The position numbers were made by a program, and so were the translations under genes. Source: Streptomyces akebiae (lineage in GTDB: Bacteria > Actinomycetota > Actinomycetes > Streptomycetales > Streptomycetaceae). Taken from it: DNA of 64,000 bases. This document shows positions 9,474 through 37,529 of this stretch, in pieces. How positions within the stretch are numbered: position 1 is the first letter of the stretch; every line of letters starts with the position of its first letter. The notes under the pieces were generated by a model. The model had not been told where the DNA came from, did no database searches, and worked only from the letters and a program-made list of their open reading frames with translations. Location: positions 310,001 to 374,000 of the forward strand of contig NZ_CP080647.1 in assembly GCF_019599145.1 (NCBI RefSeq), written 5' to 3'.

Positions 9474-9509
9474 GTCTCACATGACACAACGACGGGCGTT
9501 ATGCGCAAC
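9474..9509 (-). promoter_or_regulatory. Tandem 17-bp operator, site 1 (reductase 1)
   Basis: Read on the minus strand, the first unit begins GTTGCGCATAACG and the second is GTTGTGTCATGTGAGAC, 19 bp apart start to start. The element ends 38 bp before the reductase start. It shows that the reductase-glyA-sdaA-fdhD genes have their own promoter although gbcA1 is encoded upstream. Confidence 0.7.
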
Positions 9510-9558
9510 ATGGTTTCGGTGGAATTCCGGGGTGTCAAGGGGGCGGGACCGAGCGAGG

Positions 9559-10692
9559 TCAGTGCGCGGGTCCGACGTCGAGCTTCTTCTGGAGCCAGGT
9601 GTGGAACTCGCCGATGTGGTGCTCGCTGGGCACCAGCACACCGCCCTTGGCGTACGCCTTCGAGCTCATCGCCGGCTGGGTGCGCTCGCAGGCGTCGAAG
9701 TCCTGCTGGTTGACCCGGTGGAAGAGCTCCACCGAACGCTCCACGTCCTTGCCGCTCTCGACGACGTGCGGCAGATACAGCCAGTCGCACTCGACGATCG
9801 TGCGGTCGGCCGCCATCGGGTACATCCGGTGGAAGATCACGTGGTCGGGTACGAGGTTGATGAAGACCTGCGGCCGGACGGTGATCGCGTAGTAGCGGCG
9901 GTCCTGGTCCTCGGCGACACCGGGAATACGGTCCAGACCCTCGGAACCGTCCACGGTGAACCCCCGCACCTCCTCACCGAACTCCGCGCCATGGCCCACG
10001 TAGTACTGGGCGGCGTACCCGTCCGCGAACTCCGGCAGCACCTCGGTCAGTTCGGGATGGATCGTGGCACAGTGGTAGCACTCCATGAAGTTCTCGATGA
10101 TGAGCTTCCAGTTCGCCTGCACGTCGTACGTGATCCGGCGGCCCACCGAGAGGTTGCCGATGTCGTAGCGCTCGATCGACTCCAGGTCGCCGAGCCGCTC
10201 GACGACCGCGCCCAGCACGTCGGCCTCGAAGGACGGCGGCTCGTCGGCCAGGCACACCCACACATAGCCGAGCCACTCCCGCACATGGACGTTGACCAGG
10301 CCGTACGCGGTGCGGTCGATGTCCGGCATCGAGGTCAGGTTCGGCGCGGCGACGAGCTTGCCGTCCAGGCCGTACGTCCAGGCGTGGTAGGGGCACTGGA
10401 AGGCCCGCTTGACCTCGCCGGACTCCTCGGTGCAGAGCCTGGCCCCGCGGTGCCGGCAGATGTTGAGGAAGGCCTTGACCGAGCCGTCCCGGGATCGGGA
10501 GACGAGGACGCTCTCGCGTCCGACCTGGTAGGTGCGGAAGGCACCGGGCTTCGCCAGCTCGGAGGCGCGCGCGACACAGAACCACATGGCCTCGAAGACC
10601 CGCTCCTGCTCCTGGGCGAAGACTCCGGGGTCCGTGTAGTACTCGCCCGACAGCGTGGGGATCAGGCTGGGCGGCAGATTCGTGAGGGTCAT
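9559..10692 (-). CDS. gbcA: Rieske oxygenase alpha subunit, glycine betaine monooxygenase-like, copy 1
   Basis: Likely N-demethylase that turns glycine betaine into dimethylglycine with release of formaldehyde. The protein has 377 residues. The Rieske [2Fe-2S] site is CRHRGARLC then CPYH. The mononuclear iron site is in ENFMECYHCATIHPE. The start is ATG 10692; the frame stays open further upstream only across the neighbouring hydrolase gene. It sits in an operon with the formaldehyde-oxidising mscR and MBL genes, which fits the formaldehyde product. A 366-bp stretch (9817-10182) is identical to the second copy at 33192-34322. Pseudomonas GbcA is the known model; substrate here is inferred from the surrounding pathway and could be another quaternary amine. 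Confidence 0.82.
   Translation of the reverse strand: MTLTNLPPSLIPTLSGEYYTDPGVFAQEQERVFEAMWFCVARASELAKPGAFRTYQVGRESVLVSRSRDGSVKAFLNICRHRGARLCTEESGEVKRAFQCPYHAWTYGLDGKLVAAPNLTSMPDIDRTAYGLVNVHVREWLGYVWVCLADEPPSFEADVLGAVVERLGDLESIERYDIGNLSVGRRITYDVQANWKLIIENFMECYHCATIHPELTEVLPEFADGYAAQYYVGHGAEFGEEVRGFTVDGSEGLDRIPGVAEDQDRRYYAITVRPQVFINLVPDHVIFHRMYPMAADRTIVECDWLYLPHVVESGKDVERSVELFHRVNQQDFDACERTQPAMSSKAYAKGGVLVPSEHHIGEFHTWLQKKLDVGPAH
9817..10182. repeat. Gene-conversion tract, copy 1
   Basis: I aligned this stretch base by base with 33447-33812 and found all 366 bases the same, including wobble positions. Flanking parts of the two genes differ at many sites. A further identical run of about 97 bases begins near 10342. 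Confidence 0.9.
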
Positions 10693-10733
10693 CGAGTCAC
10701 CTTCGGGAGGATCGGGAAGCGATGGCGGGCGGG

Positions 10734-11366
10734 TCAGTGGCCGCGGGTGATCCACTCGTCGAGGTGGGGCGCCTCGGCCCCGATCGTGGTGGTGTCGCCG
10801 TGACCGGTGTGGACGGTGGTGGCGGCGGGGAGCGTCAGCAGCCGGTCCCGGATGGAGGCGATGATGGTGCCGAAGTCCGAGAAGGAGCGGCCGGTGGCCC
10901 CCGGACCGCCCTGGAAGAGCGTGTCGCCGGAGAACAGGGCGTTCAGCTCGGGTGCGTGGAGGCAGACCGCGCCGGGCGAGTGGCCGGGGGTGTGCAGCAC
11001 CGTCAGCTCGACGCCGGCGACGGTCAGGGTCTCGCCCGCGGCCAGCGGGCGGACGTCGGGCGCCTCTTCGCCGTGCGCCATCTTCCACAGGACGGTGTCG
11101 GCGGGGTGGAGCATGATGGGCGCGCCGTGGCGGGCGGCCAGGTCCGGGGCTGCGTTGACGTGGTCGTTGTGGGCGTGGGTGCACACGACGGCGACCAGAC
11201 GGCGGTCGCCCACGGCGGCCGCGATGGCGTCCGCGTCGTGCGCGGCGTCGACGACGAGGACCTCCTCGTCGTCGCCGATCAGCCAGACGTTGTTGTCGAC
11301 CTCCCAGGTGCCGCCGTCCAGTTCGAAGGTGCCGGAGGTGACGAGGCGCTCGACGCGGGCGGTCAC
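10734..11366 (-). CDS. Metallo-beta-lactamase-fold hydrolase, probable S-formylmycothiol hydrolase
   Basis: Zinc hydrolase of 210 residues with the motif THAHNDH (an HxHxDH site with Asn) near residue 68 and later ligands in HTPGHSPG and SGDTLFQGG. Its GTG start overlaps the stop of the mycothiol dehydrogenase gene by 4 bp, so the two are translationally coupled. Such pairing is common in actinobacteria. By analogy with S-formylglutathione hydrolase it may cleave S-formylmycothiol to formate and mycothiol; a glyoxalase II-like role is the alternative. Fold is firm, reaction is inferred. Confidence 0.8.
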
Positions 11367-12448: not shown

Positions 12449-12781
12449 GGTCGATCTCCTCGTCGAGGAAGAGGGGGAAGGGGGAGGGGGAGGAGCTTCA
12501 CCGGGCCTGCCCGCCCGGACGGGGACCGTGGCCGGGCCGCCGATCGCCGCGTTTCATATGACGCAACGATGTTCGTCATGAGCAACGACGACCAAACTGT
12601 CTCCTCGTGGACACCCACTGTCAAGAGGTTGACCACGCCGACTTGCCCGCTCCCCCTCGACGCCTCCCCCTTCCCTGGACGGGAGGGTCCGTGCGAGCAT
12701 GCGGGCGACTGGGTCCGGCCATGGTCACCGCACTCGGCGAGCACCTCGGAGCCATCGGGAGCGGCTGCGTATAGTTGCACT
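12449..12781. other. Divergent intergenic region between mscR1 and iclR1
   Basis: This 333-bp stretch holds no credible gene. It contains operator site 2 for the mscR1 operon and leads into the single palindrome at the iclR1 start. The middle (12600-12740) shows nothing I can name. Confidence 0.6.
12551..12586 (-). promoter_or_regulatory. Tandem 17-bp operator, site 2 (mscR1 operon)
   Basis: On the minus strand the units are GTTGCTCATGACGAACA and GTTGCGTCATATGAAAC with the standard 2-bp gap. It stands 103 bp before mscR1, the farthest of the set, so a leader or a far promoter is likely. Confidence 0.7.
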
Positions 12782-12790
12782 ATGAGCAAC
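12774..12790. promoter_or_regulatory. Single palindromic operator over the iclR1 start, site 3
   Basis: GTTGCTCATAGTGCAAC (minus strand) is a 17-bp palindrome with 5-bp perfect arms. It covers the ATG of iclR1 (12782). The left neighbour unit expected in the tandem form is very degenerate. Binding here would block expression of the regulator itself. Confidence 0.65.
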
Positions 12791-13579
12791 TACTCGGCAG
12801 AGGGCGCAACAGCGGGTGCCGCGGTGAACGGTGTGCAGTCCGTCGACCGCGCCGTCAGCGTCCTGGAGATCCTCGCCCAGCGCGGCGAGGCCGGTGTCAG
12901 TGAGGTCGCCGCCGAGATCGACGTCCACAAGTCGACCGCCTTCCGGCTCCTCGGGGCGCTGGAGGCACGCGGACTGGTCGAGCAGACGGCCGAGCGGGGC
13001 AAGTACCGGCTCGGCTTCGGCATCGTGCGGCTCGCCGGCGCCGTCACGGGCCGGCTCGACATCACGCAGCAGGGCCGGCAGGTGTGCGAGCGGCTCAGCG
13101 AGGAGATCGGCGAGACCGTCAACATCGCCGTGCTCCAGGAGCACTACGCGGTCAATCTCCACCAGGTGCGCGGCCCGGGCGCGGTCGGCACCCACAACTG
13201 GGTCGGCCAGCTCACCCCCGTGCACGCCACGTCCAGCGGCAAGATCCTGCTGGCCCACCTCCCGGAGCGACAGCGGGCCGAGGTGCTGGAGGCGTCCGGG
13301 CTGCGCAAGCTGACGCCGCACACGCTGACGACCAGGGCGAAGCTGGAGCAGGACCTCACCACGGCGCGCGAGCTCGGGTACGCGGTGACGCTGGAGGAGC
13401 TGGAGATCGGACTGCACGCCATGGCGGCCCCGATCCGCTCCCGCGAGGGCCAGGTCGTCGCCGCGCTCAGCGCCTCCGGCCCGGCCTACCGCTTCACCGA
13501 GGAACGCATCCGGGAACTCGTGCCCGTACTGACGCGGGGCGCCGAGGAGATCAGCCGCAGGATGGGCTATCTGGGCTGA
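12782..13579 (+). CDS. IclR-family transcriptional regulator, copy 1
   Basis: 265-residue regulator. N-terminal winged helix (about residues 14-75; [19 protein letters not shown] is the recognition part). C-terminal effector domain with the family feature [14 protein letters not shown] near residue 145 and SASGPAYRF near the end. I take ATG 12782 because the paralogue begins with the same MSNYS. It is divergent from the mscR1 operon. Together with the paralogue at 32387 it is the obvious candidate to bind the repeated GTTGC-N7-GCAAC operators. The last 29 bp overlap, tail to tail, the open frame of the folP remnant. Confidence 0.93.
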   Translation: MSNYSAEGATAGAAVNGVQSVDRAVSVLEILAQRGEAGVSEVAAEIDVHKSTAFRLLGALEARGLVEQTAERGKYRLGFGIVRLAGAVTGRLDITQQGRQVCERLSEEIGETVNIAVLQEHYAVNLHQVRGPGAVGTHNWVGQLTPVHATSSGKILLAHLPERQRAEVLEASGLRKLTPHTLTTRAKLEQDLTTARELGYAVTLEELEIGLHAMAAPIRSREGQVVAALSASGPAYRFTEERIRELVPVLTRGAEEISRRMGYLG

Positions 13580-14194: not shown

Positions 14195-14797
14195 TCAGAC
14201 GTACTCCGTCGCCGCGTCGAGCAGCCAGTCCGCCAGATAGCCGGCGAACGACGAACGGACCAGGACCCAGAAACCGGCGCCGGGCTCCTCCCGTGCGACC
14301 AGGACGGCCTGGGTGCGGGCCAGGGTGGTCTGGGCGCAGCGCCCGGCACCGAAGGCGCGCGGGTGCAGGTCCAGCGGGCAGCCGTGGGCCAGCAGGTCGC
14401 GGGCGCGCGGGCCGGTGATGAGGACCGTGGTGCGCTGTGCGGAGACGTCGGTCACGGAGACCGGCTCCTCTCCGGCGGCTTCCCTGATCCGGCTCTCCAG
14501 CTCGCGCCCGCCGCCCGGCGGCCCCACGAGCAGCCACTCGTCGGGGCCGAGCCACAGCGCGGTCAGCTCCCCCGCGCGGGCGACGGTGTTGGGCTCCAGC
14601 GGTAGCGGCAGGCCCAGCGCGAGGCCGACGGCGTCCGCCGCCGCCCCCTTGGCGTCGAGACGTACGTCGAGCTGGGTGAGGAAGGGGAGTTCGGCCAGGC
14701 GGATCCTGCCCCCGGAGGTGCGGGTGGCGGCGGCCAGCCGGTCGGCGGCCCCGGACAGGGGGCTGCGGGGCCGGGAGGTCGGGGCGGTGTCAGCCAT
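14195..14797 (-). CDS. soxG: Sarcosine oxidase gamma subunit
   Basis: 200-residue gamma subunit of the heterotetrameric sarcosine oxidase. Motifs AELPFLTQLDVRLD, LGPDEWLLVGP and DVSAQRTTVLITGPRARDLLAHGCPLDL are characteristic, and the fold resembles the folate-binding GcvT N-terminal part. Its ATG overlaps the soxA stop by 8 bp. It is the last intact gene of the dmgO-folD-soxBDAG operon before the folP remnant. Confidence 0.92.
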   Translation of the reverse strand: MADTAPTSRPRSPLSGAADRLAAATRTSGGRIRLAELPFLTQLDVRLDAKGAAADAVGLALGLPLPLEPNTVARAGELTALWLGPDEWLLVGPPGGGRELESRIREAAGEEPVSVTDVSAQRTTVLITGPRARDLLAHGCPLDLHPRAFGAGRCAQTTLARTQAVLVAREEPGAGFWVLVRSSFAGYLADWLLDAATEYV

Positions 14798-17369
14798 CGC
14801 GGCGGGCTCCCTCGGGGTCGTAGAGAACGGGGCTCGCGACGGTCACGGGGACCAGTCGGTCGCCCACGGGGGCGTACAGCCGCTCGCCGACGCGGTCCCT
14901 GCCGCCCTTGACCAGGGCGAGCGCGAAGGTCCGGCCGAGGGCGGCACTGCGGTAGCTGGAGGTGACGTGGCCGAGCATCGGCACGGGCGGGGCCGGCAGC
15001 ACGCTGTCGGCGACCAGGTGGGTGCCCTCGGGGAGGAAGGCGCCCGGGTCCTCGGGGAGGAGGCCTACCAGGTGCTTGCGGTCGGGGCGGGCGGTGTCCG
15101 CGCGGGCGTGGGACCGCTTGCCGATGAAGTCCGGCTTCTTCTTCGAGACCACCCAGCTCATCCCGAGGTCCTGCGGGGTGACGGTGCCGTCGGTGTCCTG
15201 GCCGATGATCGGGTAGCCCTTCTCGGCACGCAGGACGTGCATGGTCTCGGTGCCGTACGGGGTGATGCCGTACGGTGCGCCGGCCTCGTACAGCGCCTCC
15301 CAGAGGGCCAGGGCCTCCCACGGCGACACGTTGATCTCGTAGGCGAGTTCACCGGAGAAGCTGATGCGGCAGACCCGGGCCTCGATGCCCGCGACGGCCG
15401 TCTCGCGCCAGGCCATGAACGGGAAGTCCTCGTTCGACACGGCCAGTCGCGGGGCGAGGGAGCCGAGGACCTCGCGGGACTTCGGCCCGACCAGCGCGAC
15501 CGTGGCCCACTGCTCGGTCACCGACGTGCAGTGGACCTTCAGCTCGGGCCACTCCGTCTGGAGCCACTCCTCCATCCAGTCGAGCACGGTGGCGGCGTTG
15601 CCGGTCGTCGTGGTGACCAGGTAGCGGTCCTGGGCGACCCGGATGACCGTGCCGTCGTCGAAGACCATGCCGTCCGGGCGGCACATGACGCCGTAGCGGA
15701 TCATGCCGACCTTCAGGGTGCTCATCATGTTGGTGTAGAGCAGGTCGAGGAAGACACCGGCGTCCGGGCCCTGGACGTCGATCTTGCCGAGGGTGGAGGC
15801 GTCCATGAAGCCCACGCCCTCGCGGGTGGCCGCGCACTCGCGGAGCACGGCGGTCTCCATGTCCTCGCCGTCCCGCGGGTAGTACCAGGGTCGCTTCCAC
15901 TGACCGACGTTCTCGAACAGCGCGCCGTGCCCGACGTGCCACTCGTGGAGGGCGGTCGTACGGACCGGATCGCTGAGCACGCCCCGGTCACGGCCCGCGA
16001 GGGCGGCGAAGGAGACCGGTGTGTACGGCGGGCGGAAGGTGGTCGTGCCGAGAGCCGAGACGTCCACGCCGAGCAGCTCGGCGACGACACCGCCGGCCAG
16101 CACGCCCGAGGTCTTGCCCTGGTCGTTGGCGGTGCCCGCCGTGGTGTACCGCTTGGTGTGCTCCACCGAGCGCAGGCCGGCGCCGGTCGCGCGGGCCAGG
16201 TCGGCCACCGTGACGTCGCGCTGGAGGTCGACGAACCGGGGGGCGTCCGACTCGCCCGGGACGACGTACACATGCATCGGCGGTGTCCCGGCGGGCCGCG
16301 CGGCGACCACGGGGAGGCGGGGCGCCTCGGCCGTGTATCCCTCGGCCTCGATCGCGCGGGCACCGGCGGCGGCGCCCTGGGCGAGGACGGCGGCCTGGTC
16401 GAGGAGACCGCTCGCGCTGCCCACGACCTCGACCGCCTGGCGGCAGGTGTCGGGCACGAAGGAGCCCAGCGACGCGTCGTGGCGCAGCTTGCCGCCGGAC
16501 TGGCTGAACAGGTGCGCCACCGGGTTCCAGCCGCCGGAGACCAGCAGCAGGTCGGCGGCGAACTCCCGCTGTCCGGCGGACTCGCCGTACGGGGCGACGC
16601 TCACGGCGGTGAGGCGGGGCCCGCCGTCGGTGCCGGTGACGGCGTGTCCGGCCAGGACCTCGATGCCGGCGGCCGTGGCGCGCTCGGCCCACTCCCCCGG
16701 TTCGGGGCGGGTGTCGACGATCGCGGTGACGGTCAGGCCCGCCGAGGAGAGGTCCAGGGCCGCCTCGTAGGCGCTGTCGTTGGTGGTGAGGACGACCGCG
16801 CGGCGGCCGGGCAGGGCGCCGTGGCGGTTGACGTGGGTGCGGGCCGAGGAGGCCAGCATCACGCCGGGGCGGTCGTTGTCCGCGAAGGCCAGGGAGCGTT
16901 CGTGGGCGCCGGTCGCGAGGACGACGCGGCGGGCGCGGATGCGGTGGACGCGTTCCCGGGAGACGTGTCCGGGCGCCGCGCCGCCGAGGTGGTTGGTGCG
17001 GCGCTCGACGGCGAGGAGGTGGTTGTCGTCGTAGTAGCCGAAGACGGTGGTCCGGCGCAGGACGCGGACCTCGGGGGCGGCGTCGAGCAGGTCGGCGGTC
17101 TCCCTCACCCAGTCGAGGTGTTCGGCGGTGCCGAGGAGGCTGCCGCCGAGTTCCGGCTGGTCGTCGGCGAGGATGACACGGGCGCCGCTTCTCGCGGCCG
17201 CCGCCGCGGCCGCGAGACCGGCCGGGCCCGCGCCCACGATCAGGAGGTCGCAGTGGGCGTGCACGGCGTCGTAACGGGCGGGGTCGGGTTCAGTGGCGAG
17301 GCGTCCCTGGCCGGGGAGGCTGGTCGCGACCAGGCCGTCGTACAGCTCGACGGTCGTCGCGGGGAGCAT
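14790..17369 (-). CDS. soxA: Sarcosine oxidase alpha subunit, N-terminus lacking a start codon
   Basis: Large subunit that carries NAD and the THF-binding GcvT-like domain; sarcosine is oxidised to glycine with formation of methylene-THF. From ATG 17369 the protein has 859 residues, with the dinucleotide loop GAGPAGLAAAAAA near residue 48 and the C-terminal aminomethyltransferase domain (about 480-850). Relatives have about 90 more N-terminal residues. These are still encoded in frame up to about 17612 (TTQPFRHPTRGRVDRD through EEPFPEPMLP), but no ATG, GTG or TTG is present in frame between that point and the stop inside the repeat at 17613-17740. Either translation starts at 17369, losing the N-terminal domain, or an unusual start is used. 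Confidence 0.9.
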   Translation of the reverse strand: MLPATTVELYDGLVATSLPGQGRLATEPDPARYDAVHAHCDLLIVGAGPAGLAAAAAAARSGARVILADDQPELGGSLLGTAEHLDWVRETADLLDAAPEVRVLRRTTVFGYYDDNHLLAVERRTNHLGGAAPGHVSRERVHRIRARRVVLATGAHERSLAFADNDRPGVMLASSARTHVNRHGALPGRRAVVLTTNDSAYEAALDLSSAGLTVTAIVDTRPEPGEWAERATAAGIEVLAGHAVTGTDGGPRLTAVSVAPYGESAGQREFAADLLLVSGGWNPVAHLFSQSGGKLRHDASLGSFVPDTCRQAVEVVGSASGLLDQAAVLAQGAAAGARAIEAEGYTAEAPRLPVVAARPAGTPPMHVYVVPGESDAPRFVDLQRDVTVADLARATGAGLRSVEHTKRYTTAGTANDQGKTSGVLAGGVVAELLGVDVSALGTTTFRPPYTPVSFAALAGRDRGVLSDPVRTTALHEWHVGHGALFENVGQWKRPWYYPRDGEDMETAVLRECAATREGVGFMDASTLGKIDVQGPDAGVFLDLLYTNMMSTLKVGMIRYGVMCRPDGMVFDDGTVIRVAQDRYLVTTTTGNAATVLDWMEEWLQTEWPELKVHCTSVTEQWATVALVGPKSREVLGSLAPRLAVSNEDFPFMAWRETAVAGIEARVCRISFSGELAYEINVSPWEALALWEALYEAGAPYGITPYGTETMHVLRAEKGYPIIGQDTDGTVTPQDLGMSWVVSKKKPDFIGKRSHARADTARPDRKHLVGLLPEDPGAFLPEGTHLVADSVLPAPPVPMLGHVTSSYRSAALGRTFALALVKGGRDRVGERLYAPVGDRLVPVTVASPVLYDPEGARRDG

Positions 17370-18067
17370 CGGCTCGGGGAAGGGTTCCTCGATCTGGACG
17401 ACCGCGTTGGGCTCTTCGACGCCGGCGGAGAAGATGCCCCGGGGGCGGCCGAGTTTGATGCTGGTGCCCGCCTCGACGACGCCGTTGGCAAGGAGGGCGG
17501 AGGCGAGGGTGTCGCCTCGGTGGCCCTGGTACTCGGTGCCGTCGAAGGTGAACGTGAGGGTCGTGTCCCGGTCGACGCGGCCTCGGGTGGGGTGGCGGAA
17601 CGGCTGGGTTGTCCCGCCCCCGCCGCCCCTTCCCGTCCCGTCCTGAAGGGGCTGTGCCCCTTCGACCCCGTTCCGGGGGCTGCGCCCCCGGGCCCCCCGT
17701 CGGCCTGAACGGCCTCGTCCTCAAGCGCCGGACGGGCTGAGACATGCCGACCGGCGTCGAGAGGCGTGGCCGAGATCGCCGGCCTTGGTTCCGGGGTTTC
17801 CGGGCGTTCCTCGCCCGAGCGGTACACCGACAGGATCTCGTTCGTCGAGGTGTCGCGGACCGCGTTGAACCAGCGGCGGCAGCCCGCCGCGTGGCTCCAG
17901 CGTTCGGCGAAGGGGCCCTTGGTGTTGTCGCGGAAGAAGAGGTAGCGGGCCCACTCCTCGTCCGTGAGGGCCGAGGGGGTCTCGGGGTAGGCCACGTGGG
18001 CCTGGCCGCCGTAGTGGAACTCGGCCTCGTCGCGGGGCCCGCACCACGGGCAGGTGATGAGCAGCAT
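17240..18067 (-). CDS. soxD: Sarcosine oxidase delta subunit with run-on C-terminus
   Basis: Small zinc-binding subunit. The first 100 or so residues are a normal SoxD: ITCPWCGPRDEAEFHYGG supplies two zinc cysteines, and AGCRRWFNAVRDT the later ones. The normal stop is missing; after SVYRSGEERPE the frame enters the intergenic-type repeat (17613-17740) and then runs out of frame through the start of soxA to 17240, giving 275 residues instead of the usual 95-110. The last half of the predicted protein is therefore not homologous to anything expected. Start ATG 18067 is 12 bp behind soxB. Confidence 0.82.
   Translation of the reverse strand: MLLITCPWCGPRDEAEFHYGGQAHVAYPETPSALTDEEWARYLFFRDNTKGPFAERWSHAAGCRRWFNAVRDTSTNEILSVYRSGEERPETPEPRPAISATPLDAGRHVSARPALEDEAVQADGGPGGAAPGTGSKGHSPFRTGREGAAGAGQPSRSATPPEAASTGTRPSRSPSTAPSTRATEATPSPPPSLPTASSRRAPASNSAAPGASSPPASKSPTRSSRSRNPSPSRCSPRRPSSCTTAWSRPASPARDASPLNPTPPVTTPCTPTATS
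17613..17740. repeat. Streptomyces GC-rich intergenic repeat at the soxD/soxA junction
   Basis: The stretch holds nested inverted repeats (GGGGCTGTGCCCC, then GGGGGCTGCGCCCCC) and ends with TCAAGCGCCGGACGGGC. From memory this resembles a repeat found in many Streptomyces intergenic spaces. Here it occupies the place where soxD should stop and soxA should start. Confidence 0.7.
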
Positions 18068-18078
18068 GGTTGGGCTCC

Positions 18079-20230: not shown

Positions 20231-20267
20231 CGGCGGTGTTCCTTCCCTCTGCGGTCGTGGCCGGGGG

Positions 20268-22781
<2,514 letters not shown>

Positions 22782-23933: not shown

Positions 23934-28527
<4,594 letters not shown>

Positions 28528-29725: not shown

Positions 29726-30562
29726 TCAGCCCTCCAGCCGGTCCAGCAGGGCCCGCCGCCACCTCTCCGTCTCCGCGATCTGGTTGAAGGTGAACAGGTG
29801 CAGTCCCGCCACCCCGGACGCGGGGTCGGTGAGGACGTTCTCCGTGCGCCTGAGCAGCTTCTCGGGCGAGTAGCCGCCGGGCGCGGCGAAGCGCACGAAC
29901 CACGACGCGTGCCGGGTCAGGAAGCGGGTGGACTCCCCCACGCCGATCTTCGTCGCCATCGCCAGCAGCTTCGCCCGCTGCACGGGCCCCGCGACGCCCA
30001 CATGGACCGGCAGGGTCACCTCCCGGCGCCGCACCCGGACGAGCCAGTCCCCCAGCACCCGCGGGTCGAAGCAGAGGTTGCTCACGATGTACGTGGCGTG
30101 CTCGCGCTTGTCCCACATCGCCTGGACCGTGATGTCGTCGTGGATGAGCGGATGGCTCTCGGGATAACCGGTGACACCGACGTGGTCGAACGGCCGGCCC
30201 AGCTCGCCCAGCCGCCGCAGCACGGGCAGCGCCCCGTCGTAGGAACCGGCCGGTGGATCGGCGTCCCCCGCCGGGACGAACACGTCGTCCACGCCCGCCT
30301 CGCGCAGCCGCCCCGCGATCTCCTTCAGGTGCAGATCGTCCCGCAGGAGCCGGGCGGGGACGTGCGGGACCACACGGTAGCCGTGCGCGGCGAGCCGGAC
30401 GGCGAGGTCGAGGGTCGGTTCCAGTCCCTTGACCGGCGACGCCGTCACGGTGACGACGACGTCGCGCGGGACATGGGCCAGGACCTTCTCCTCGGTGGTC
30501 CTCGCCGGCAGCACCTCGTAGCGGACCGTCCTCAGCAGCACACGGAGCCCCGCGGCGCCCAA
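29726..30562 (-). CDS. Methylenetetrahydrofolate reductase-like protein
   Basis: 278-residue protein of the methylenetetrahydrofolate reductase superfamily. Recognisable parts are the first strand VLLRTVRYEVLPART, VPHVPARLLRD, DVFVPAGDADPP and the C-terminal LHLFTFNQIAETERWR. It is divergent from classical MetF and may be the atypical actinobacterial type or a one-carbon enzyme of other function. The TTG start at 30562 follows the choline dehydrogenase stop by 3 bp with GGAG in front, so the two are coupled. It would turn surplus methylene-THF to methyl-THF. Confidence 0.75.
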   Translation of the reverse strand: MGAAGLRVLLRTVRYEVLPARTTEEKVLAHVPRDVVVTVTASPVKGLEPTLDLAVRLAAHGYRVVPHVPARLLRDDLHLKEIAGRLREAGVDDVFVPAGDADPPAGSYDGALPVLRRLGELGRPFDHVGVTGYPESHPLIHDDITVQAMWDKREHATYIVSNLCFDPRVLGDWLVRVRRREVTLPVHVGVAGPVQRAKLLAMATKIGVGESTRFLTRHASWFVRFAAPGGYSPEKLLRRTENVLTDPASGVAGLHLFTFNQIAETERWRRALLDRLEG

Positions 30563-30565
30563 CGT

Positions 30566-32236
30566 CTACTCCGCCTGCTTCTGGACGTCACGGTGGCGGT
30601 AGTACGCGGCCTTCGACGGCGCCAGCGGCTCCTTGCCGAGGATCAGGTCGGCGGCCTTCTCCGCGATCATCATGACCGGCGCGTAGATGTTGCCGTTGGT
30701 GACGTAGGGCATGACGGAGGCGTCCACCACCCGCAGACCGTCCACGCCGTGCACACGCATGCTGGTGGGGTCCACGACCGCCATCTCGTCGGTGCCCATC
30801 TTGCAGGTGCAGGACGGGTGCAGAGCGGTCTCGCCGTCCTTGGCGACCCAGGCGAGGATCTCCTCGTCCGACTCGACGGACGGTCCGGGCGAGATCTCCC
30901 CGTCGTTGTAGGGAGCGAGCGCGGGCTGGTTGAGGAGCTTGCGCGCCACCCTGATCGCCTCGACCCACTCGCGGCGGTCCTGTTCGGTGGAGAGGTAGTT
31001 GAAGCGCAGGGCGGGGTGCTGCCGCGGGTCCTTGCTCTTGATCTTCACCGAACCGATGGCGTCCGAGTACATGGGCCCGACGTGCACCTGGTAGCCGTGG
31101 CCGCCGGCCGGCACGGAGCCGTCGTAGCGGACCGCGATCGGCAGGAAGTGGAACATCAGGTTGGGGTAGTCGACGTCGTCGTTGCTGCGGGCGAACCCAC
31201 CGGCCTCGAAGTGGTTGGTGGCGGCCGGGCCCTTGCGGAAGAGCCACTGGAGCCCGATGAAGGGCGCGCGCCACTTCGCCAGGTACGGCTGCATGGAGAC
31301 GGGCTGCTTGCAGCCGTACTGGATGTAGACCTCCAGGTGGTCCTGCATGTTCTCGCCGACGCCCGGGAGGTCGTGCACGACGTCGATGCCCAGCGCCCGG
31401 AGTTCCTCGGCGTTGCCCACGCCGGAGAGCTGGAGCAGCTGCGGGGAGTTGATCGCGCCGCCGCAGAGGATGACCTCCTTGGCGCGGACCTGCTTCGGGG
31501 CGCCCTTGCCGCGCTGATACTCGACGCCGACGGCCTTCTTGCCCTCGAAGAGGACACGGGTGACGAGGGCCCGGGTGGTGACCGTGAGGTTGGGACGTCT
31601 GCGGACGGGCTTCAGATACGCCTTCGAGGCCGAGAGCCGGCGTCCGCGGTGGACATTCCGGTCGAACTTCGCGAAACCTTCCTGCCGGAAGCCGTTGACG
31701 TCGTCGGTGGGGGCGTAGCCCGCCTCCTCGGTGGCCTTGAGGAAGGCTCCGAAGAGCGGGTTGGTCGCCGGGCCGCGCTCCAGGACGAGGGGACCGTCAT
31801 GGCCGCGGAACTCGTCGTCCGGATCGGCCGCGAGACAGTTCTCCATGCGCCGGAAGTACGGCAGACAGTGCGCGTAGTCCCAGGTCCCCATACCGGGGTC
31901 GGCCGCCCAGCGCTCGTAGTCCATGGGGTTGCCGCGCTGGAAGATCATGCCGTTGATGCTGCTGGACCCGCCCAGCACCTTGCCGCGCGCGTGGTAGACA
32001 CGTCGGCCACCCATGTGGGGCTCGGGCTCGGACTCGTACTTCCAGTCGTAGAAGCGACTGCCGATCGGGTAGGTCAGCGCCGCGGGCATGTGGATGAAGA
32101 CGTCCCACGGGAAGTCCGACCGGCCCGCTTCCAGGACCAGCACTCGGTTCGCCGGGTCGGCGGACAGCCTGTTTGCCAGTGCACTGCCCGCGGAACCACC
32201 ACCGACGATGACGAAGTCGTACTGCACAGGGGCCAT
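30566..32236 (-). CDS. betA: GMC-family choline dehydrogenase
   Basis: FAD enzyme of 556 residues that oxidises choline to betaine aldehyde. N-terminal [21 protein letters not shown] signatures [13 protein letters not shown] and [18 protein letters not shown], and active-site histidine regions PSCTCKMG and [21 protein letters not shown] 32236 gives the normal N-terminus. Operator site 7 lies 50 bp upstream. It starts an operon with the MetF-like gene and is divergent from iclR2. Confidence 0.9.
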
Positions 32237-32285: not shown

Positions 32286-32321
32286 GTCGCGCTATGCGCA
32301 CCAGGTTGCGAACGACGCAAC
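32286..32321 (-). promoter_or_regulatory. Tandem 17-bp operator, site 7 (betA)
   Basis: Minus strand: GTTGCGTCGTTCGCAAC, a perfect palindrome with 6-bp arms, then GGTGCGCATAGCGCGAC. It is the best conserved copy of the family. Confidence 0.78.
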
Positions 32322-32359: not shown

Positions 32360-32395
32360 GTTGTTTACTGCGCGTATAGTTGCACTGTGAGCAAC
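32360..32395. promoter_or_regulatory. Tandem 17-bp operator over the iclR2 start, site 8
   Basis: Minus strand: GTTGCTCACAGTGCAAC (perfect 5-bp arms), then TACGCGCAGTAAACAAC. The first unit covers the GTG start codon of iclR2, as site 3 does for iclR1, pointing to autorepression. Confidence 0.72.
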
Positions 32396-33190
32396 TACAG
32401 CCTTGACACGGAAACGTCGAATTCACACGGGGGCTCGGGCGGTGTCCAGTCGGTGGACCGCGCCATCAGCGTCCTGGAGATCCTCGCTCAGCGTGGCGAA
32501 GCCGGCGTCAGCGAGGTGGCGGCGGAGATCGAGGTGCACAAGTCCACGGCCTTCCGTCTCCTCGGCGCCCTGGAGGCGCGCGGTCTGGTGGAGCAGGCCG
32601 GCGAGCGCGGCAAGTACCGGCTCGGCTTCGGCATCGTGCGCCTGGCCGGCGCGGTCACGGGGCGTATCGACATCACGCAGCAGGGCCGTCCCGTCTGCGA
32701 GCGGCTGGCCGAGGAGATCGGCGAGACCGTCAACATCGCCGTGATGCAGGAGCATTACGCGATCAACCTGTACCAGGTGCGCGGCCCGGGGGCCGTCACC
32801 GCGCACAACTGGGTGGGCCAGCTGACCCCCCTGCACGCCACGTCGAGCGGCAAGATCCTGCTGGCCCACCTGCCGGCGAAGGAACGCGCCGAACTGCTGT
32901 CCACCGTGGGCATGAAGAAGGTCACCCCGCACACCATCACCGCGAAGACGAAGCTGGAGAAGAACCTCGTCGCCGCACGGGAGCGGGGCTACGCCTTCAC
33001 CCTGGAGGAGTTGGAGATCGGCCTGCACGCCATGGCCGCACCCGTTCGCAACCGGGACGGCGACGTCATCGCCGCCCTCAGCGCCTCCGGGCCCTCCTAC
33101 CGGTTCACCGAGGAGCGCCTGCACGAGATGTCCCCGGTGCTGCTCAAGGGCGCGGCCGAGATCAGCCACCGGATGGGCTTCCTGGGCTGA
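32387..33190 (+). CDS. IclR-family transcriptional regulator, copy 2
   Basis: 267 residues, collinear with the copy at 12782 apart from the variable first 20 residues. Helix-turn-helix region [20 protein letters not shown] is nearly the same, so both should read the same operators. The effector half keeps [14 protein letters not shown] and differs mostly in surface positions ([17 protein letters not shown]). GTG 32387 lies inside operator site 8. Its stop is one base from that of gbcA2, tail to tail, with no terminator between them. Confidence 0.93.
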
Positions 33191-33191
33191 T

Positions 33192-34322
33192 TCACCCCTG
33201 AGGGGTGCCGAGGCGCTCGTTCACCCAGTCGTGGAACGCGCCGATGTGGTGCTCACTGGGCACCAGCACACCGCCCTTGGCGTACAGCCGGGAGCTCATG
33301 CCGGGCTGGGTCCGCTCACAGGCCTCGAAGTCCTGGAGGTTGACCCGGTCGAAGAGTTCCACGGACCGGCTGACGTCCTTGCCGCTCTCGACGACGTGCG
33401 GCAGATACAGCCAGTCGCACTCGACGATCGTGCGGTCCACGGACACCGGGTACATCCGGTGGAAGATCACGTGGTCGGGTACGAGGTTGATGAAGACCTG
33501 CGGCCGGACGGTGATCGCGTAGTAGCGGCGGTCCTGGTCCTCGGCGACACCGGGAATACGGTCCAGACCCTCGGAACCGTCCACGGTGAACCCCCGCACC
33601 TCCTCACCGAACTCCGCGCCATGGCCCACGTAGTACTGGGCGGCGTACCCGTCCGCGAACTCCGGCAGCACCTCGGTCAGTTCGGGATGGATCGTGGCAC
33701 AGTGGTAGCACTCCATGAAGTTCTCGATGATGAGCTTCCAGTTCGCCTGCACGTCGTACGTGATCCGGCGGCCCACCGAGAGGTTGCCGATGTCGTAGCG
33801 CTCGATCGACTCGACGTCGCCCAGGCGGGCGATGACCTCACCGATGACGTCCTCCTCGAAGGACGGCGGGTTCTCCGCGAGACAGACCCAGACATACCCG
33901 AGCCATTCCCGTACGGCGACGCTCACCAGGCCGTACTCGGTACGGCCCACATCGGGCATCTTGGTGAGGTTGGGCGCGGCGACGAGCTTGCCGTCCAGGC
34001 CGTACGTCCAGGCGTGGTAGGGGCACTGGAAGGCCCGCTTGACCTCGCCGGACTCCTCGGTGCAGAGCTTGGCCCCGCGGTGTCGGCAGACGTTGAAGTA
34101 CGCGCGGATCGAGTTGTCCCGGGCCCGGGTGACGAGGATGCTCTCGCGGCCCACGTCGACGGTGCGGAAGGCACCGGGCTTCGCCAGCTCGGAGGCGCGC
34201 GCGACACAGAACCACATGGTCTCGAATATGTGCTCCTGCTCCTGGGCGAAGACCACCGGATCGGTGTAGGAGGAGCCGGGAAGAGTGGCGATCAGGCTGT
34301 CGGGCAGGCTGGTCGAGGTCAC
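33192..34322 (-). CDS. Rieske oxygenase alpha subunit, glycine betaine monooxygenase-like, copy 2
   Basis: 376-residue paralogue of the oxygenase at 9559. Rieske ligands CRHRGAKLC and CPYH, and iron site ENFMECYHCATIHPE are present. The start is GTG 34322 (VTSTSLPDS) with GAGGAG before it. The two proteins differ mainly in the N-terminal 50 residues, in a loop after the Rieske domain and at the C-terminus, so substrate preference may differ a little. Operator site 9 stands 67 bp upstream. Downstream on the same strand there is no other gene. Confidence 0.82.
   Translation of the reverse strand: MTSTSLPDSLIATLPGSSYTDPVVFAQEQEHIFETMWFCVARASELAKPGAFRTVDVGRESILVTRARDNSIRAYFNVCRHRGAKLCTEESGEVKRAFQCPYHAWTYGLDGKLVAAPNLTKMPDVGRTEYGLVSVAVREWLGYVWVCLAENPPSFEEDVIGEVIARLGDVESIERYDIGNLSVGRRITYDVQANWKLIIENFMECYHCATIHPELTEVLPEFADGYAAQYYVGHGAEFGEEVRGFTVDGSEGLDRIPGVAEDQDRRYYAITVRPQVFINLVPDHVIFHRMYPVSVDRTIVECDWLYLPHVVESGKDVSRSVELFDRVNLQDFEACERTQPGMSSRLYAKGGVLVPSEHHIGAFHDWVNERLGTPQG
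33447..33812. repeat. Gene-conversion tract, copy 2
   Basis: Partner of 9817-10182, identical over 366 bases at a constant offset of 23,630. It covers most of the catalytic domain. Bases just outside both ends differ. Confidence 0.9.
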
Positions 34323-34388
34323 GGGGCACTCCTCGGGGAACGTCGCGGAGGGATCATGCGGGCGCCGGGAGGAACGACTCCGGTCGGC

Positions 34389-34424
34389 GTTGTGTATGGA
34401 GCAACGCTGCGCGCTGTGGGCAAC
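34389..34424 (-). promoter_or_regulatory. Tandem 17-bp operator, site 9 (gbcA2)
   Basis: Minus strand: first unit begins GTTGCCCACAGCGCG; the second is GTTGCTCCATACACAAC, with arms matching at four of five positions. It is 67 bp before the oxygenase start. Confidence 0.7.
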
Positions 34425-34452: not shown

Positions 34453-35616
34453 TCAAGATGTGGTGGCGGCAAGTTCCTTGCGCACCCGCGTGAACAGCCG
34501 CGGCTGGTTCATCCCGAGCACGGCGATCGGCCGGCCGGCGCGCCGGTAGACGGCGAGGACGTCGCGGTCGTCGGCCGCGCCCGCCTCGACGGTGACGCTG
34601 TCGGCCTCGGCCGCGTTGCCGGCGAACTGGATGCGGACGCCGTACTGGTCCGACCAGAAGTACGGCGGCCTGGGTACGCCCGGCTCGACCGCGCCCCCCG
34701 CCAGCAGGGTGGCGACGGCGGCGTCCGGGCGCTCGCGCGCGCCGGTCCAGTGCTCCACACGGCGGTGGCGGCCCGCACGGGGGTCGTACCAGTTGGCGCA
34801 GTCGCCGACCGCGACCACGGAGGCCAGGCTGGTACGGCCGTCGGCGCCGCACTTCACCCCGTTGTCCAGCGCGATGCCGGAACCCGCGAGCCACTCGACG
34901 CACGGGCGGGCCCCGACGCCGACGACGACGATGTCGGCGGGGACGCTGCGGCCGTCCTCCAGCAGGACGGCGTCGACCCGGTCCTCGCCGCTCAGTCCCT
35001 TCACCCCCACGCCGCACAACAGCCGTACGCCGTGGTCGGCGTGGAGGCCGGAGACCACGGCGCCCATGGTGTCGCCGAGCGGTCCGGCGAGCGGGGTCGA
35101 CGCCGCCTCCACGACGGTCACCTCAAGGCCGAGGGCGCAGGCGGTGGAGGCGACCTCGGCGCCGATGAAACCGCCGCCGATCACCACCAGGCGTCCGCCG
35201 CGGGCCAGTTCGTCCCGCAGGGCGCGGGCGTCGTCCAGGGTGCGCAGGGTGTGGACTCCGGCCAGGCCCTCGGAGCCGGGCAGGTTCCGCGCCACGGCAC
35301 CCGTGGCGATGACGAAGCCGTCGGCACGCACCTCACGTCCGTCGGCGAGGCGGACGGCTCGCCCGGTGTGGTCGAGAGCGGTGACGCGGGTGCCGAGCAG
35401 CCACTCGGCCGCCAGGTCCTCGTCCTGCGTCTCCAGGGCGAGTTCGGCCTCGCCGACGGTGCCGGCCAGGAACTCCTTGGAGAGCGGGGGCCGGTCGTAG
35501 GGACGGTGCGGTTCGTCGCCGATGACGACCAGGCGCCCGTCGAAGCCCTGCTTGCGCAGGGAGCGCGCCGCCGAGAGGCCGGCGAGAGAGGCGCCGACCA
35601 CGGCGACGGTCCTCAC
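34453..35616 (-). CDS. FAD-dependent ferredoxin reductase, copy 2
   Basis: 387 residues with the same plan as the copy at 8246: VGASLAGLSAARSL, the PYDRPPLSKEFL segment, VVIGGGFIGAEVAS, and ASVVAVGDCANW. GTG 35616 overlaps the stop of the Rieske ferredoxin gene by 4 bp, so reductase and ferredoxin are made together. That pair is the likely electron chain for one or both Rieske oxygenases. Confidence 0.88.
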   Translation of the reverse strand: MRTVAVVGASLAGLSAARSLRKQGFDGRLVVIGDEPHRPYDRPPLSKEFLAGTVGEAELALETQDEDLAAEWLLGTRVTALDHTGRAVRLADGREVRADGFVIATGAVARNLPGSEGLAGVHTLRTLDDARALRDELARGGRLVVIGGGFIGAEVASTACALGLEVTVVEAASTPLAGPLGDTMGAVVSGLHADHGVRLLCGVGVKGLSGEDRVDAVLLEDGRSVPADIVVVGVGARPCVEWLAGSGIALDNGVKCGADGRTSLASVVAVGDCANWYDPRAGRHRRVEHWTGARERPDAAVATLLAGGAVEPGVPRPPYFWSDQYGVRIQFAGNAAEADSVTVEAGAADDRDVLAVYRRAGRPIAVLGMNQPRLFTRVRKELAATTS

Positions 35617-35975
35617 GCGGGACCTCCGGCGAGCCGGGCGGAGATGCAGGGCGGCAGGTTGGGGGCCTCCGTGGAGAGCCGGACGTAGATCATGCCGTCC
35701 TCGACGGCGACCTCGTGCGTCCGGACCGGAAGCTTGGCCGGCGGGGAGTCGACCGCGCCGGTGCGCAGGTCGAACTTGGAGGCATGCAGCGGGCATTCCA
35801 CCTCGCAGCCCTCCAGCCAGCCGTCGGCGAGCGAGGCGTCCTGGTGGGTGCAGGTGTCATCGATGGCGAAGACCTCGCCGTCGTCGGTGTGGAACACCGA
35901 CACCGGCGGGTCGATGTCGAGCCGGAAGGCCTCACCTCGCGGAAGATCCGCGAGACGGCACGCGGGAATCATCAT
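35613..35975 (-). CDS. Rieske-type ferredoxin of a non-heme iron oxygenase
   Basis: 120-residue electron carrier with the [2Fe-2S] ligands CTHQDASL and CPLHASKFD, the bedA/ferredoxin component type. It passes electrons from the coupled reductase to an oxygenase. It is the only ferredoxin gene in the island; the first module has none, so this one may serve both. ATG 35975 is preceded by GAGG, and operator site 10 begins 10 bp upstream, the shortest spacing of the set. Confidence 0.9.
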   Translation of the reverse strand: MMIPACRLADLPRGEAFRLDIDPPVSVFHTDDGEVFAIDDTCTHQDASLADGWLEGCEVECPLHASKFDLRTGAVDSPPAKLPVRTHEVAVEDGMIYVRLSTEAPNLPPCISARLAGGPA

Positions 35976-35984: not shown

Positions 35985-36020
35985 GGTGCGTATAACGAAA
36001 CGGTTTGCGGTAAGCGCAAC
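35985..36020 (-). promoter_or_regulatory. Tandem 17-bp operator, site 10 (ferredoxin-reductase 2)
   Basis: Minus strand: GTTGCGCTTACCGCAAA opens the element (6-bp near-perfect arms) and GTTTCGTTATACGCACC follows at the 19-bp period. Confidence 0.7.
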
Positions 36021-36283: not shown

Positions 36284-36323
36284 GACGAGCCGTGGCCGGG
36301 GGATGCCCCGGCCACGGCTCGTC
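36284..36323 (-). terminator. Strong terminator after mscR2
   Basis: An 18-bp perfect stem (GACGAGCCGTGGCCGGGG and complement) with a GATG loop lies about 50 bp beyond the mscR2 stop codon. Confidence 0.88.
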
Positions 36324-36371
36324 CGTCACGCTCCGCGGGCTACGCCGACGCGGCCGCGGCCCTCCCCGGCG

Positions 36372-37457
36372 TCAGAGGACCACCACCGAGCGCAGGACGT
36401 CGCCGCCGTGCATCCGCTCGAAGGCCTTCTCGACCTCGTCGAGCGCGATGGTCTCCGTGACGAAGGTGTCCAGGTCAAGACGGTTCTGCAGGAAGAGGTC
36501 GATCAGCATGGGGAAGTCGCGGTCGGGCAGGCAGTCGCCGTACCAGGAGGACTTCAGGGCGCCGCCGCGGCCGAAGACGTCGAGGAGGGGGAGTTCGAGT
36601 TTCATCTCCGGGGTGGGGACGCCGACGAGGACGACCGTGCCGGCCAGGTCGCGGGCGTAGAAGGCCTGCTTGTAGGTCTCGGGGCGGCCGACCGCCTCGA
36701 TGACGACATCGGCACCGAAGCCGCCGGTCAGCTCACGGATCGCCTCGACCGGGTCGGTCTCGCGGGAGTTGACGGAGTGGGTCGCGCCCAGTTTCCTGGC
36801 GGTCTCCAGCTTGAGGTCGTCGATGTCGACCGCGATGATCTTCGCGGCGCCCGCCAGCTCGGATCCGACGACCGCCGCGGCCCCGACTCCGCCGCAGCCG
36901 ATGACGGCGACCGTGTCTCCCCTGCCGACGTTCCCCGTGTTGATCGCGGCGCCGATGCCCGCCATCACCCCGCAGCCCAGCAGCCCGGCGACGGCCGGCG
37001 ACGCGGCCCGGTCGACCTTGGTGCACTGGCCGGCGGCGACGAGGGTCTTCTCCGCGAAGGCGCCGATGCCCAGCGCGGGAGCCAGCTCGGTACCGTCGAG
37101 CAGGGTCATCTTCTGCTTCGCGTTGTGGGTGGCGAAGCAGTACCAGGGGCGACCACGTCGACACGCCCGGCAACTACCGCACACCGCACGCCAGTTGAGG
37201 ATGACGAAGTCACCGGGGGCGACATCCGTGACCCCCTCCCCCACCGCCTCCACCACACCCGCGGCCTCATGGCCGAGCAGGAAGGGGAAGTCGTCGTTGA
37301 TCCCGCCCTCCCGGTAGTGCAGATCGGTGTGGCACACCCCGCAGGCCTCGACCTTCACCAGCGCCTCGCCCGGGCCGGGGTCCGGCACGACGATCGTTTC
37401 CAGACTGACGGGGGCGCCCTTGCCCCGCGCGACGACAGCACGGACCTGGTGAGCCAT
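36372..37457 (-). CDS. S-(hydroxymethyl)mycothiol dehydrogenase, copy 2
   Basis: 361 residues, same length and motifs as the copy at 11363: [55 protein letters not shown]. The two genes show ordinary scattered differences, with no conversion tract like that of gbcA. It is a single-gene unit with its own operator (site 12) and terminator, and it lacks an MBL partner. Confidence 0.92.
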
Positions 37458-37493
37458 GGCCACTCCTCGGCTGGTACGAGACCTGAGTCTGAT

Positions 37494-37529
37494 GTTTCTC
37501 ATCGCGGCACGCATAGCGCGTACCGCAAC
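37494..37529 (-). promoter_or_regulatory. Tandem 17-bp operator, site 12 (mscR2)
   Basis: Minus strand: first unit begins GTTGCGGTACGCGC, second is GTGCCGCGATGAGAAAC, period 19 bp. It lies 37 bp before the start codon. Confidence 0.68.

What the first reader, a model, noticed from the sequence alone, without database searches (positions are those of the whole stretch)
9474..37529. A repeated 36-bp tandem operator defines a betaine/one-carbon regulon
Ten complete elements (9474, 12551, 22746, 28553, 28696, 32286, 32360, 34389, 35985, 37494) share one layout: two 17-bp units of form GTTGC-N7-GCAAC, exactly 19 bp apart. Nine lie 10-103 bp before the start of a betaine, sarcosine or formaldehyde gene; one overlaps the iclR2 start. 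A single unit covers the iclR1 start. I found none in the sugar or signalling genes on the right. The 19-bp period (about two helical turns) would put two dimers on the same face of the DNA. Known betaine regulators such as Pseudomonas GbdR are AraC-type, so an IclR-based circuit with this operator appears to be a different solution.
Basis: partly seen in the sequence, partly recalled or inferred. Interest (0 to 1): 0.88.

Follow-up and report, generated by a model that had tools for sequence, protein, structure and literature searches.

The report
IclR operator set for betaine breakdown
A Streptomyces bacterium places the same 36-base DNA switch in front of nearly every gene group for breaking down choline and betaine and disposing of the formaldehyde released, and related bacteria do the same, so it very probably marks one set of genes controlled by an IclR-type repressor.

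Summary
All ten 36-bp elements are at the stated places, and a model of them scanned over the 10.55-Mb genome returns only those ten. An eleventh lies at 36086-36121. A matrix trained on the ten finds 545 sites, against 2 in reversed DNA, in 80 named loci around iclR2 orthologues; 528 lie at starts of cluster genes. In 392 genus genomes 191 of 192 with the motif have this IclR, but the motif tracks the pathway gene gbcA as closely. The regulon reaches other families.

New: apart from betA, the iclR genes and distal auxiliary operators, every distinct operator examined (50 of 50) follows a TTGAC-N17/18-NANNNT promoter and begins within -2 to +10 bp of the end of its -10 box. It covers the transcription start, which predicts repression. 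iclR2 carries the operator, and iclR1 one unit, over the start codon; the two are recent paralogues.

Tandem IclR sites 18-22 bp apart are known (PMC8222616), so this is a new member of a known kind: an actinomycete betaine/C1 regulon. I found it in no paper searched; that paper's supplement was out of reach. Binding and effector are untested.

The parts
9474..9509 (-). tandem operator before fdR1 (ferredoxin reductase; glyA and sda follow)
   Evidence: TTGACA-N17-AACCAT ends at its edge
12551..12586 (-). tandem operator before mscR1-mbl-gbcA1
12774..12790 (+). single operator unit over the iclR1 start codon; a TATAGT -10-like box overlaps its left edge
22746..22781 (-). tandem operator before dmgdh-folD-soxB-soxD-soxA-soxG
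28553..28588 (-). tandem operator before gbsA and the OpuA-type ABC transporter genes
28696..28731 (+). tandem operator before purU
32286..32321 (-). tandem operator before betA-orf278
   Evidence: no TTGAC within 90 nt upstream
32360..32395 (+). tandem operator over the -10-like box and start codon of iclR2
34389..34424 (-). tandem operator before gbcA2
35985..36020 (-). tandem operator before fdx-fdR2
   Evidence: 20.4 bits; a second operator 101-103 bp upstream at fdx in 37 of 72 named loci; not returned
37494..37529 (-). tandem operator before mscR2
12782..13579 (+). iclR1, IclR-family regulator, 265 aa
   Evidence: PF09339 and PF01614; 207 of 267 aligned columns identical to IclR2
32387..33190 (+). 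iclR2, IclR-family regulator, 267 aa
   Evidence: PF09339 and PF01614
5460..6842 (-). sda, L-serine ammonia-lyase
   Evidence: TIGR00720 above cut-off
6912..8167 (-). glyA, serine hydroxymethyltransferase, split over two reading frames in this genome
   Evidence: PF00464 in two pieces
8246..9436 (-). fdR1, ferredoxin reductase
   Evidence: PF07992, PF14759
9559..10692 (-). gbcA1, Rieske oxygenase related to glycine betaine monooxygenase
   Evidence: best NCBIfam GlBtMonoOxGbcA, below its cut-off
10734..11366 (-). mbl, metallo-beta-lactamase-fold protein beside mscR1
   Evidence: PF00753
11363..12448 (-). mscR1, S-(hydroxymethyl)mycothiol (formaldehyde) dehydrogenase
   Evidence: TIGR03451 above cut-off
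14195..19311 (-). soxG, soxA, soxD, soxB: heterotetrameric sarcosine oxidase
   Evidence: soxB above its NCBIfam cut-off, soxA and soxG just below theirs; PF04267 for soxD
19370..20275 (-). folD, methylene-THF dehydrogenase/cyclohydrolase
   Evidence: NF010789 above cut-off
20268..22706 (-). dmgdh, dimethylglycine-dehydrogenase-like FAD and GcvT-fold enzyme
   Evidence: no family above cut-off; substrate inferred from context
22943..27037 (-). OpuA-type glycine betaine/choline ABC transporter (binding protein, permease, ATPase)
   Evidence: PF04069, PF00528; PF00005
27058..28527 (-). gbsA, betaine-aldehyde dehydrogenase
   Evidence: best NCBIfam TIGR01804, below its cut-off
28745..29626 (+). 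purU, formyl-THF deformylase
   Evidence: TIGR00655 above cut-off
29726..32236 (-). orf278 (no Pfam match) and betA, choline dehydrogenase
   Evidence: TIGR01810 above cut-off; orf278 without family
33192..34382 (-). gbcA2, Rieske oxygenase (start codon uncertain)
   Evidence: best NCBIfam GlBtMonoOxGbcA, below its cut-off
34453..35975 (-). fdR2 and fdx, ferredoxin reductase and Rieske ferredoxin
36372..37457 (-). mscR2, S-(hydroxymethyl)mycothiol dehydrogenase
   Evidence: TIGR03451 above cut-off

Best explanation
The 36-bp element is the operator of an IclR-family repressor regulon. It covers choline and betaine uptake, stepwise demethylation (betA, gbsA, gbcA, dmgdh, sox), disposal of formaldehyde and C1-folate (mscR, folD, purU, and probably glyA behind fdR1), and the regulators themselves. 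IclR1 and/or IclR2 bind as two dimers on the two 17-bp palindromes 19 bp apart. Because most operators start right at the end of the -10 box and cover the transcription start, bound IclR would block RNA polymerase. A pathway metabolite, probably a methylated glycine or one of its products, would release it. Shown by sequence: sites, spacing, genome specificity, conservation, co-occurrence, promoter geometry. Inferred: binding, repression, effector.
For: Only the ten sites in the own genome match the model at E<=10. 545 sites against 2 in reversed sequence in 80 named loci, 80 of 80 loci with a site, 528 of 545 at cluster-gene starts, matrix trained on the window alone. IclR and motif: 191 both, 15 IclR only, 1 motif only, 185 neither, of 392; outside the genus 19/14/5/230 of 268. 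Exact 19-bp spacing recurs. Of six sites in genus relatives that matched no cluster gene, four stand at the start of BCCT betaine/choline transporters (3) and folP (1). Of 76 distinct operators, 50 have TTGAC 27-39 nt upstream and none has it elsewhere in 90 nt; the 26 without are at betA (9), at iclR genes (9) or are the farther of two operators at fdR1 and fdx (8). NANNNT follows at spacer 17 or 18 in 50 of 50, against at most 8 of 50 at any other spacer from 13 to 22, and in 200 of 204 in the named set. iclR2 has the operator and iclR1 a unit over the start codon. The window's IclR1 and IclR2 share one recognition helix; among the 30 of 59 own-genome HTH_IclR matches compared, the nearest other is 48% identical there. 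The unit fits the published GTT-11-AAC IclR class except at base 4, its mirror base 14 and a less A/T-rich centre. One of two GylR-protected regions in Streptomyces clavuligerus lies at +11 to +57 (PMC9732521).
Against: No binding or expression data. The pathway gene gbcA (185 of 392 genomes) goes with the motif as closely as the IclR does: 183 of 185 gbcA genomes have the motif, 14 of the 15 genomes with IclR but no motif also lack gbcA, and only one genome (G058) has gbcA without the IclR, with no motif. So co-occurrence does not separate regulator from pathway. betA and the iclR genes lack the TTGAC module. In the named set 12 TTGAC lie outside 27-39 nt (at 17 and 41-65) and 125 of 328 distinct operators have none at 27-39; in other families only 11 of 25 have it there and 6 TTGAC lie elsewhere. 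At class level 15 of 20 IclR loci have a site at 22 bits, and one reversed control reached 25.5 bits. Five of 38 class genomes with a motif hit have no IclR at E<=1e-60. Related genomes are not independent.
Confidence: 0.82

Rival explanations
1. The IclR proteins are activators or dual regulators, as BhcR is proposed to be, and the operator is needed for induction.
For: The nearest NCBIfam model is BhcR, below its cut-off. BhcR is described as an activator with possible self-repression (PMC11323563). betA and iclR operators lack the common promoter module. An auxiliary operator lies upstream of the fdx promoter in 37 of 72 named loci.
Against: The proximal operators lie at or downstream of the end of a well-formed -35/-10, whereas the proposed BhcR activator site lies upstream of the -35.
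Confidence: 0.12
2. The operator belongs to another transcription factor; the IclR genes are merely members of the regulon and travel with the pathway.
For: The motif tracks gbcA as closely as it tracks the IclR. Binding is untested.
Against: The motif fits an IclR motif class and spacing and lies over both iclR starts. No other regulator appeared among the cluster proteins that I scanned, though not every small frame was scanned. In other families the operator again stands around an IclR of this group.
Confidence: 0.06
3. The similarity is left over from duplication of operons (gbcA1/2, mscR1/2, iclR1/2) or from chance.
For: Several genes are duplicated in the cluster.
Against: Unrelated genes (purU, betA, dmgdh, gbsA, fdx) carry it, with little else in common around it than the promoter boxes. 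Shuffles and reversed controls give almost none. It is conserved in distant families.
Confidence: 0.01

Closest known systems
IclR-family tandem operators (Suvorova and Gelfand 2021, PMC8222616; abstract, passages, sections 13 and 15 read)
   Same: 17-bp palindrome of the GTT-11-AAC class, tandem pairs with centres 18-22 bp apart predicted for 94 orthologous groups, tetramer model.
   Different: Here bases 4 and 14 are G and C (GTTGC...GCAAC, not GTTYC...GRAAC). The target pathway is betaine/C1: the words betaine, sarcosine, choline, formaldehyde and folate do not occur in that main text. Its supplement could not be read, so an unnamed group may be the same.
GylR of Streptomyces clavuligerus (PMC9732521; passages read)
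   Same: IclR-type repressor in Streptomyces, a protected region downstream of +1, self-regulation, released by pathway metabolites.
   Different: Glycerol pathway, 18-bp palindrome GGTCGGCATTGTCGAACA, different operator.
BhcR of Paracoccus denitrificans (PMC11323563; passages and section 5 read)
   Same: Best NCBIfam hit of both proteins; small-acid sensor; pocket serines 239 and 241 conserved.
   Different: Score far below the BhcR cut-off (195.7 for the IclR2 frame and 191.1 for IclR1 against 350); BhcR is described as an activator; here the residue aligned to Asp212 is never Asp and position 149 is always Trp.
Bacillus thuringiensis SoxR (PMC4941409; title and start of abstract seen in a search listing); Pseudomonas GbdR and enteric BetI (recalled)
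   Same: Control the same kind of pathway.
   Different: Sigma-54 with SoxR, AraC-type and TetR-type respectively, not IclR.

Membership tests
IclR-family regulators | IclR helix-turn-helix (PF09339) and IclR_C effector domain (PF01614) above cut-off | tested here: met
   both proteins
IclR-family regulators | palindromic site of group-1 type (GTT-11-AAC) with tandem centre spacing 18-22 bp | tested here: met
   17-bp unit, 19 bp in 49 of 54 and 17 of 21 close pairs; differs at bases 4 and 14 from the published consensus
IclR-family regulators | binds its operator as dimer/tetramer and responds to a ligand | not testable with these tools
   needs gel shift and ligand assays
BhcR (NF045644) | score above the curated cut-off of 350 bits | tested here: not met
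   195.7 and 191.1 bits
BhcR (NF045644) | oxygen-binding residues Gly160, Asp212, Ser239, Ser241 (E. coli IclR numbering; kept in BhcR) | tested here: not met
   of 61 aligned rows (60 proteins, one counted twice) 160 is Ser in 60, 212 is Thr, Ala, Ser, Val or Cys in 61, 239 is Ser in 59, 241 is Ser in 61; numbering carried over by me from the alignment
Repressor by promoter occlusion | operator overlaps or directly follows the -10 box | tested here: met
   50 of 76 distinct operators; the other 26 are at betA, iclR genes or distal positions
Repressor by promoter occlusion | transcription rises when the regulator is removed | not testable with these tools
   needs deletion and RNA measurement
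GbdR-type (AraC) betaine control | AraC-family regulator encoded with the pathway | tested here: not met
   both regulators found in the cluster are IclR-family; no AraC match among the cluster proteins scanned

The most novel reading that the evidence does not exclude
Two recent paralogous repressors with the same recognition helix read one shared operator set but have diverged ligand pockets, so the demethylation and formaldehyde-disposal regulon is gated by two different pathway signals. The family senses a methylated glycine through a pocket with an invariant Trp in place of the acid-sensing chemistry of E. coli IclR. An auxiliary operator 101-103 bp upstream adds looping at the ferredoxin operon.
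Probability: 0.3. Interest if true: 0.65.

Novelty: new member of a known kind. Interest (0 to 1): 0.52.

Why it matters
It assigns a likely regulator, an operator and a mode of control to betaine and choline breakdown in Streptomyces and other actinomycetes, for which I found no described regulator in the papers searched. It ties a large flux of toxic formaldehyde to the genes that remove it under one switch. It offers a very specific promoter-operator module for inducible expression, and a way to find regulon members, such as BCCT transporters, folP and the unknown orf278, by scanning for the operator.

Tried and rejected
Chance and operon duplication as the source of the motif were rejected. 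The BhcR name was rejected as a family assignment (score, pocket). I tried to separate regulator from pathway by genomes that have gbcA but no IclR; there is only one, G058, which lacks the motif, so the test is weak. That recount moved the odds slightly: best explanation 0.83 to 0.82, other-regulator rival 0.05 to 0.06.

Literature: ten full-text searches showed no paper on an IclR regulator of betaine or sarcosine catabolism, judged by title and start of abstract. IclR with Streptomyces, betaine and sarcosine: 0 papers; IclR with sarcosine oxidase: 3; IclR with dimethylglycine: 1. Searches listed only 20 of 55, 175 and 48 papers.

Structure prediction was not run, because coordinates are not returned and pocket distances could not be measured; the Trp argument rests on alignment only (2 of 22 other own-genome IclR proteins aligned also have Trp there).

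Rows dropped: in the promoter counts, sites with no cluster gene start within -40 to 260 bp were left out (6 of 103 in the first set; 17 of 545 in the named set and 10 of 36 in the class set), and identical operators were counted once. The 80 named loci are the best 80 of 227 relatives. The split into genus and non-genus assumes that the tool lists same-genus genomes first. In one search I translated iclR2 in a wrong frame; corrected. The tree holds one protein twice (L065).
Full report
What is there. The window is bases 310001-374000 of the main contig of a 10.55-Mb genome. Among the listed named relatives, IclR2 is closest to those of Streptomyces scabiei 87.22 (95%) and S. caniscabiei (94%). 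From about 5.4 to 37.5 kb it carries a near-complete route from choline and betaine to serine and C1-folate: choline dehydrogenase, betaine-aldehyde dehydrogenase, two Rieske oxygenases of the betaine monooxygenase kind with ferredoxin and reductases, a dimethylglycine-dehydrogenase-like enzyme, sarcosine oxidase, FolD, PurU, serine hydroxymethyltransferase, serine deaminase, two mycothiol-dependent formaldehyde dehydrogenases and an OpuA-type transporter. Some of these names rest on best matches below the curated cut-off (see parts). Two IclR-family genes, 207 of 267 aligned columns identical, lie inside.

The elements. The ten listed 36-mers have 2-6 mismatches to the 20 fixed bases; the rest of the window starts at 7, except for one overlapping shift of site 7. 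A model of the ten (R1) over the whole genome returns only these ten places at E<=10, with 150 of 3378 candidates scored.

Conservation. Using a matrix trained only on the window, 80 named loci around iclR2 orthologues (1.49 Mb) give 545 sites at 22 bits or more and 2 in the reversed control; 80 of 80 loci have at least one, 77 have three or more, and 528 sites lie at the start of a cluster gene. In 20 stretches from 13 other unnamed genus genomes each stretch has at least one site at 18 bits, also where the IclR is only 56-59% identical. Of 103 sites at 20 bits there and in the window, 97 lie at cluster-gene starts and six matched none. Of those six, three stand at the start of open frames that Pfam calls BCCT betaine/choline transporters (L050, L062, L064) and one at a pterin-binding enzyme, that is folP (L064); L061 13233 lies before a partial gbsA match, and L062 10591 I could not assign. 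A matrix from 50 operators of the window and genus (alignment A2), used on 20 stretches around this IclR in other families of the class, finds 36 sites at 22 bits in 15 of 20 stretches against 1 in the reversed controls; 26 lie at dmgdh, gbsA, fdx, iclR, purU, mscR, betA or orf278 starts. One reversed control reached 25.5 bits, so single weak sites there should not be trusted.

Link to the regulator. Across 392 genus genomes, 206 have this IclR at E<=1e-60, 192 have the motif at E<=0.05, and 191 have both; one genome has the motif alone (G338) and 15 the IclR alone. Across 296 genomes of the class, searched with model R2, the numbers are 47, 38 and 33; outside the genus 19 of 33 IclR-bearing genomes and 5 of 235 others have a hit. 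The 2x2 tests are extreme (1e-92, and 5e-16 outside the genus), but genomes are related. The pathway gene gbcA is present in 185 of the 392: 183 of these have the motif, 184 have the IclR, and 14 of the 15 genomes with IclR but no motif lack gbcA. So motif, regulator and pathway travel together, and this does not by itself prove binding. Supporting the IclR as reader of the site: the unit belongs to the published GTT-11-AAC class apart from bases 4 and 14 and a less A/T-rich centre; the spacing is the published tandem spacing; both iclR starts are covered, iclR1 by a single unit; and among 30 of 59 own-genome HTH_IclR matches compared, none other resembles IclR1 by more than 48% in the DNA-binding domain.

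Mode of action. I aligned 76 distinct operators of the window and the 20 genus stretches by the downstream gene. TTGAC occurs 50 times in the 90 bases upstream, always 27-39 bases before the operator, 43 of them at 29-33. The 26 operators without it are at betA (9), at iclR genes (9), or are the farther of two operators, 104-112 bp from fdR1 or fdx (8). A hexamer NANNNT follows at a spacer of 17 (35) or 18 (15) bases in all 50; other spacers from 13 to 22 give at most 8 of 50. In the 80 named loci (partly the same species), 203 of 328 distinct operators have TTGAC at 27-39, 12 TTGAC lie elsewhere, and 200 of the 204 within 40 bases have the -10 hexamer; in other families 11 of 25 operators, 6 TTGAC elsewhere, and 12 of 13. 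The operator thus begins between 2 bp before and about 10 bp after the end of the -10 box and covers the start of transcription. Occupation should block initiation: repression. Precedent: GylR in S. clavuligerus is a repressor with one of two protected regions at +11 to +57 (PMC9732521, passages). BhcR, described as an activator, has its proposed site upstream of the -35 (PMC11323563). At the iclR genes a TATAGT box is followed six bases later by the start codon inside the operator, which suggests leaderless, self-repressed transcripts (inference). For betA no promoter was recognised.

Auxiliary operator. Of 72 named loci with fdx, 37 have two operators within 260 bp upstream, 101-103 bp apart. 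This may allow looping (inference).

The two regulators. A tree of 61 rows, midpoint-rooted for drawing, places IclR1 and IclR2 as sister groups of genus members (97/88 on the branch between the two sets), so they look like a recent duplicate; genomes with only the IclR2 type keep the operators (L059, L060, L061). The recognition helix [15 protein letters not shown] is the same in the window's two proteins. Of positions fixed differently (85% or more in each of 29 IclR1 and 88 IclR2 rows), 11 of 177 lie in the effector domain and 1 of 71 in the HTH region; two correspond to E. coli IclR 145 and 146, the latter a published pocket residue. In 61 of 61 rows (60 proteins) the residue aligned to Pro149 of E. 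coli IclR is Trp and the one aligned to Asp212 is not Asp; Ser241 is kept in 61 and Ser239 in 59 (the numbering was carried over from the alignment). Two of 22 other own-genome IclR proteins aligned also have Trp there. A Trp plus serines could hold a methylated ammonium acid such as betaine or dimethylglycine; this is a proposal from alignment only.

Novelty. IclR regulators with tandem operators are well known (PMC8222616: 94 groups). What I did not find in print is this regulon: ten full-text searches, listed in Tried and rejected. The main text of PMC8222616 does not contain the words betaine, sarcosine, choline, formaldehyde or folate, but its supplementary regulogs were not available, so an earlier prediction there is possible. 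I therefore class it as a new member of a known kind with strong comparative support.

Noticed in passing
6912-8167 (-): The glyA copy in the regulon is split over two frames: the first part of serine hydroxymethyltransferase matches window 7769-8167 and the rest 6912-8216. Three relatives (L049, L052, L054) read the same stretch in one frame. It may be a real lesion or a sequencing error.
   Followed up: partly
29726-30562 (-): orf278, downstream of betA, matches no Pfam family, yet in L163 an operator of 37.4 bits stands directly before its homologue: an unknown protein of the betaine regulon.
   Followed up: partly
9457-9484: A direct repeat (CTGTCTCACATGA twice) adjoins and overlaps the fdR1 operator, as if a third unit were present (seen).
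   Followed up: no
L050:12221-16607 (-): In the near relative, an operator-bearing BCCT transporter and a molybdopterin oxidoreductase stand between fdx and mscR2; the window has only about 400 bp there.
   Followed up: no
L156:380-2140 and L158:100-2110: In two genomes of another family five tandem operators each stand in about 2 kb upstream of dmgdh, around a weak second match to its GcvT-like part.
   Followed up: no
L067 (G289:C58): A second, more distant IclR of this group with its own operator stands on a stretch where no other cluster gene matched.
   Followed up: no
23926-23942: A lone unit-like match (15.1 bits) at the start of the transporter binding-protein gene.
   Followed up: no
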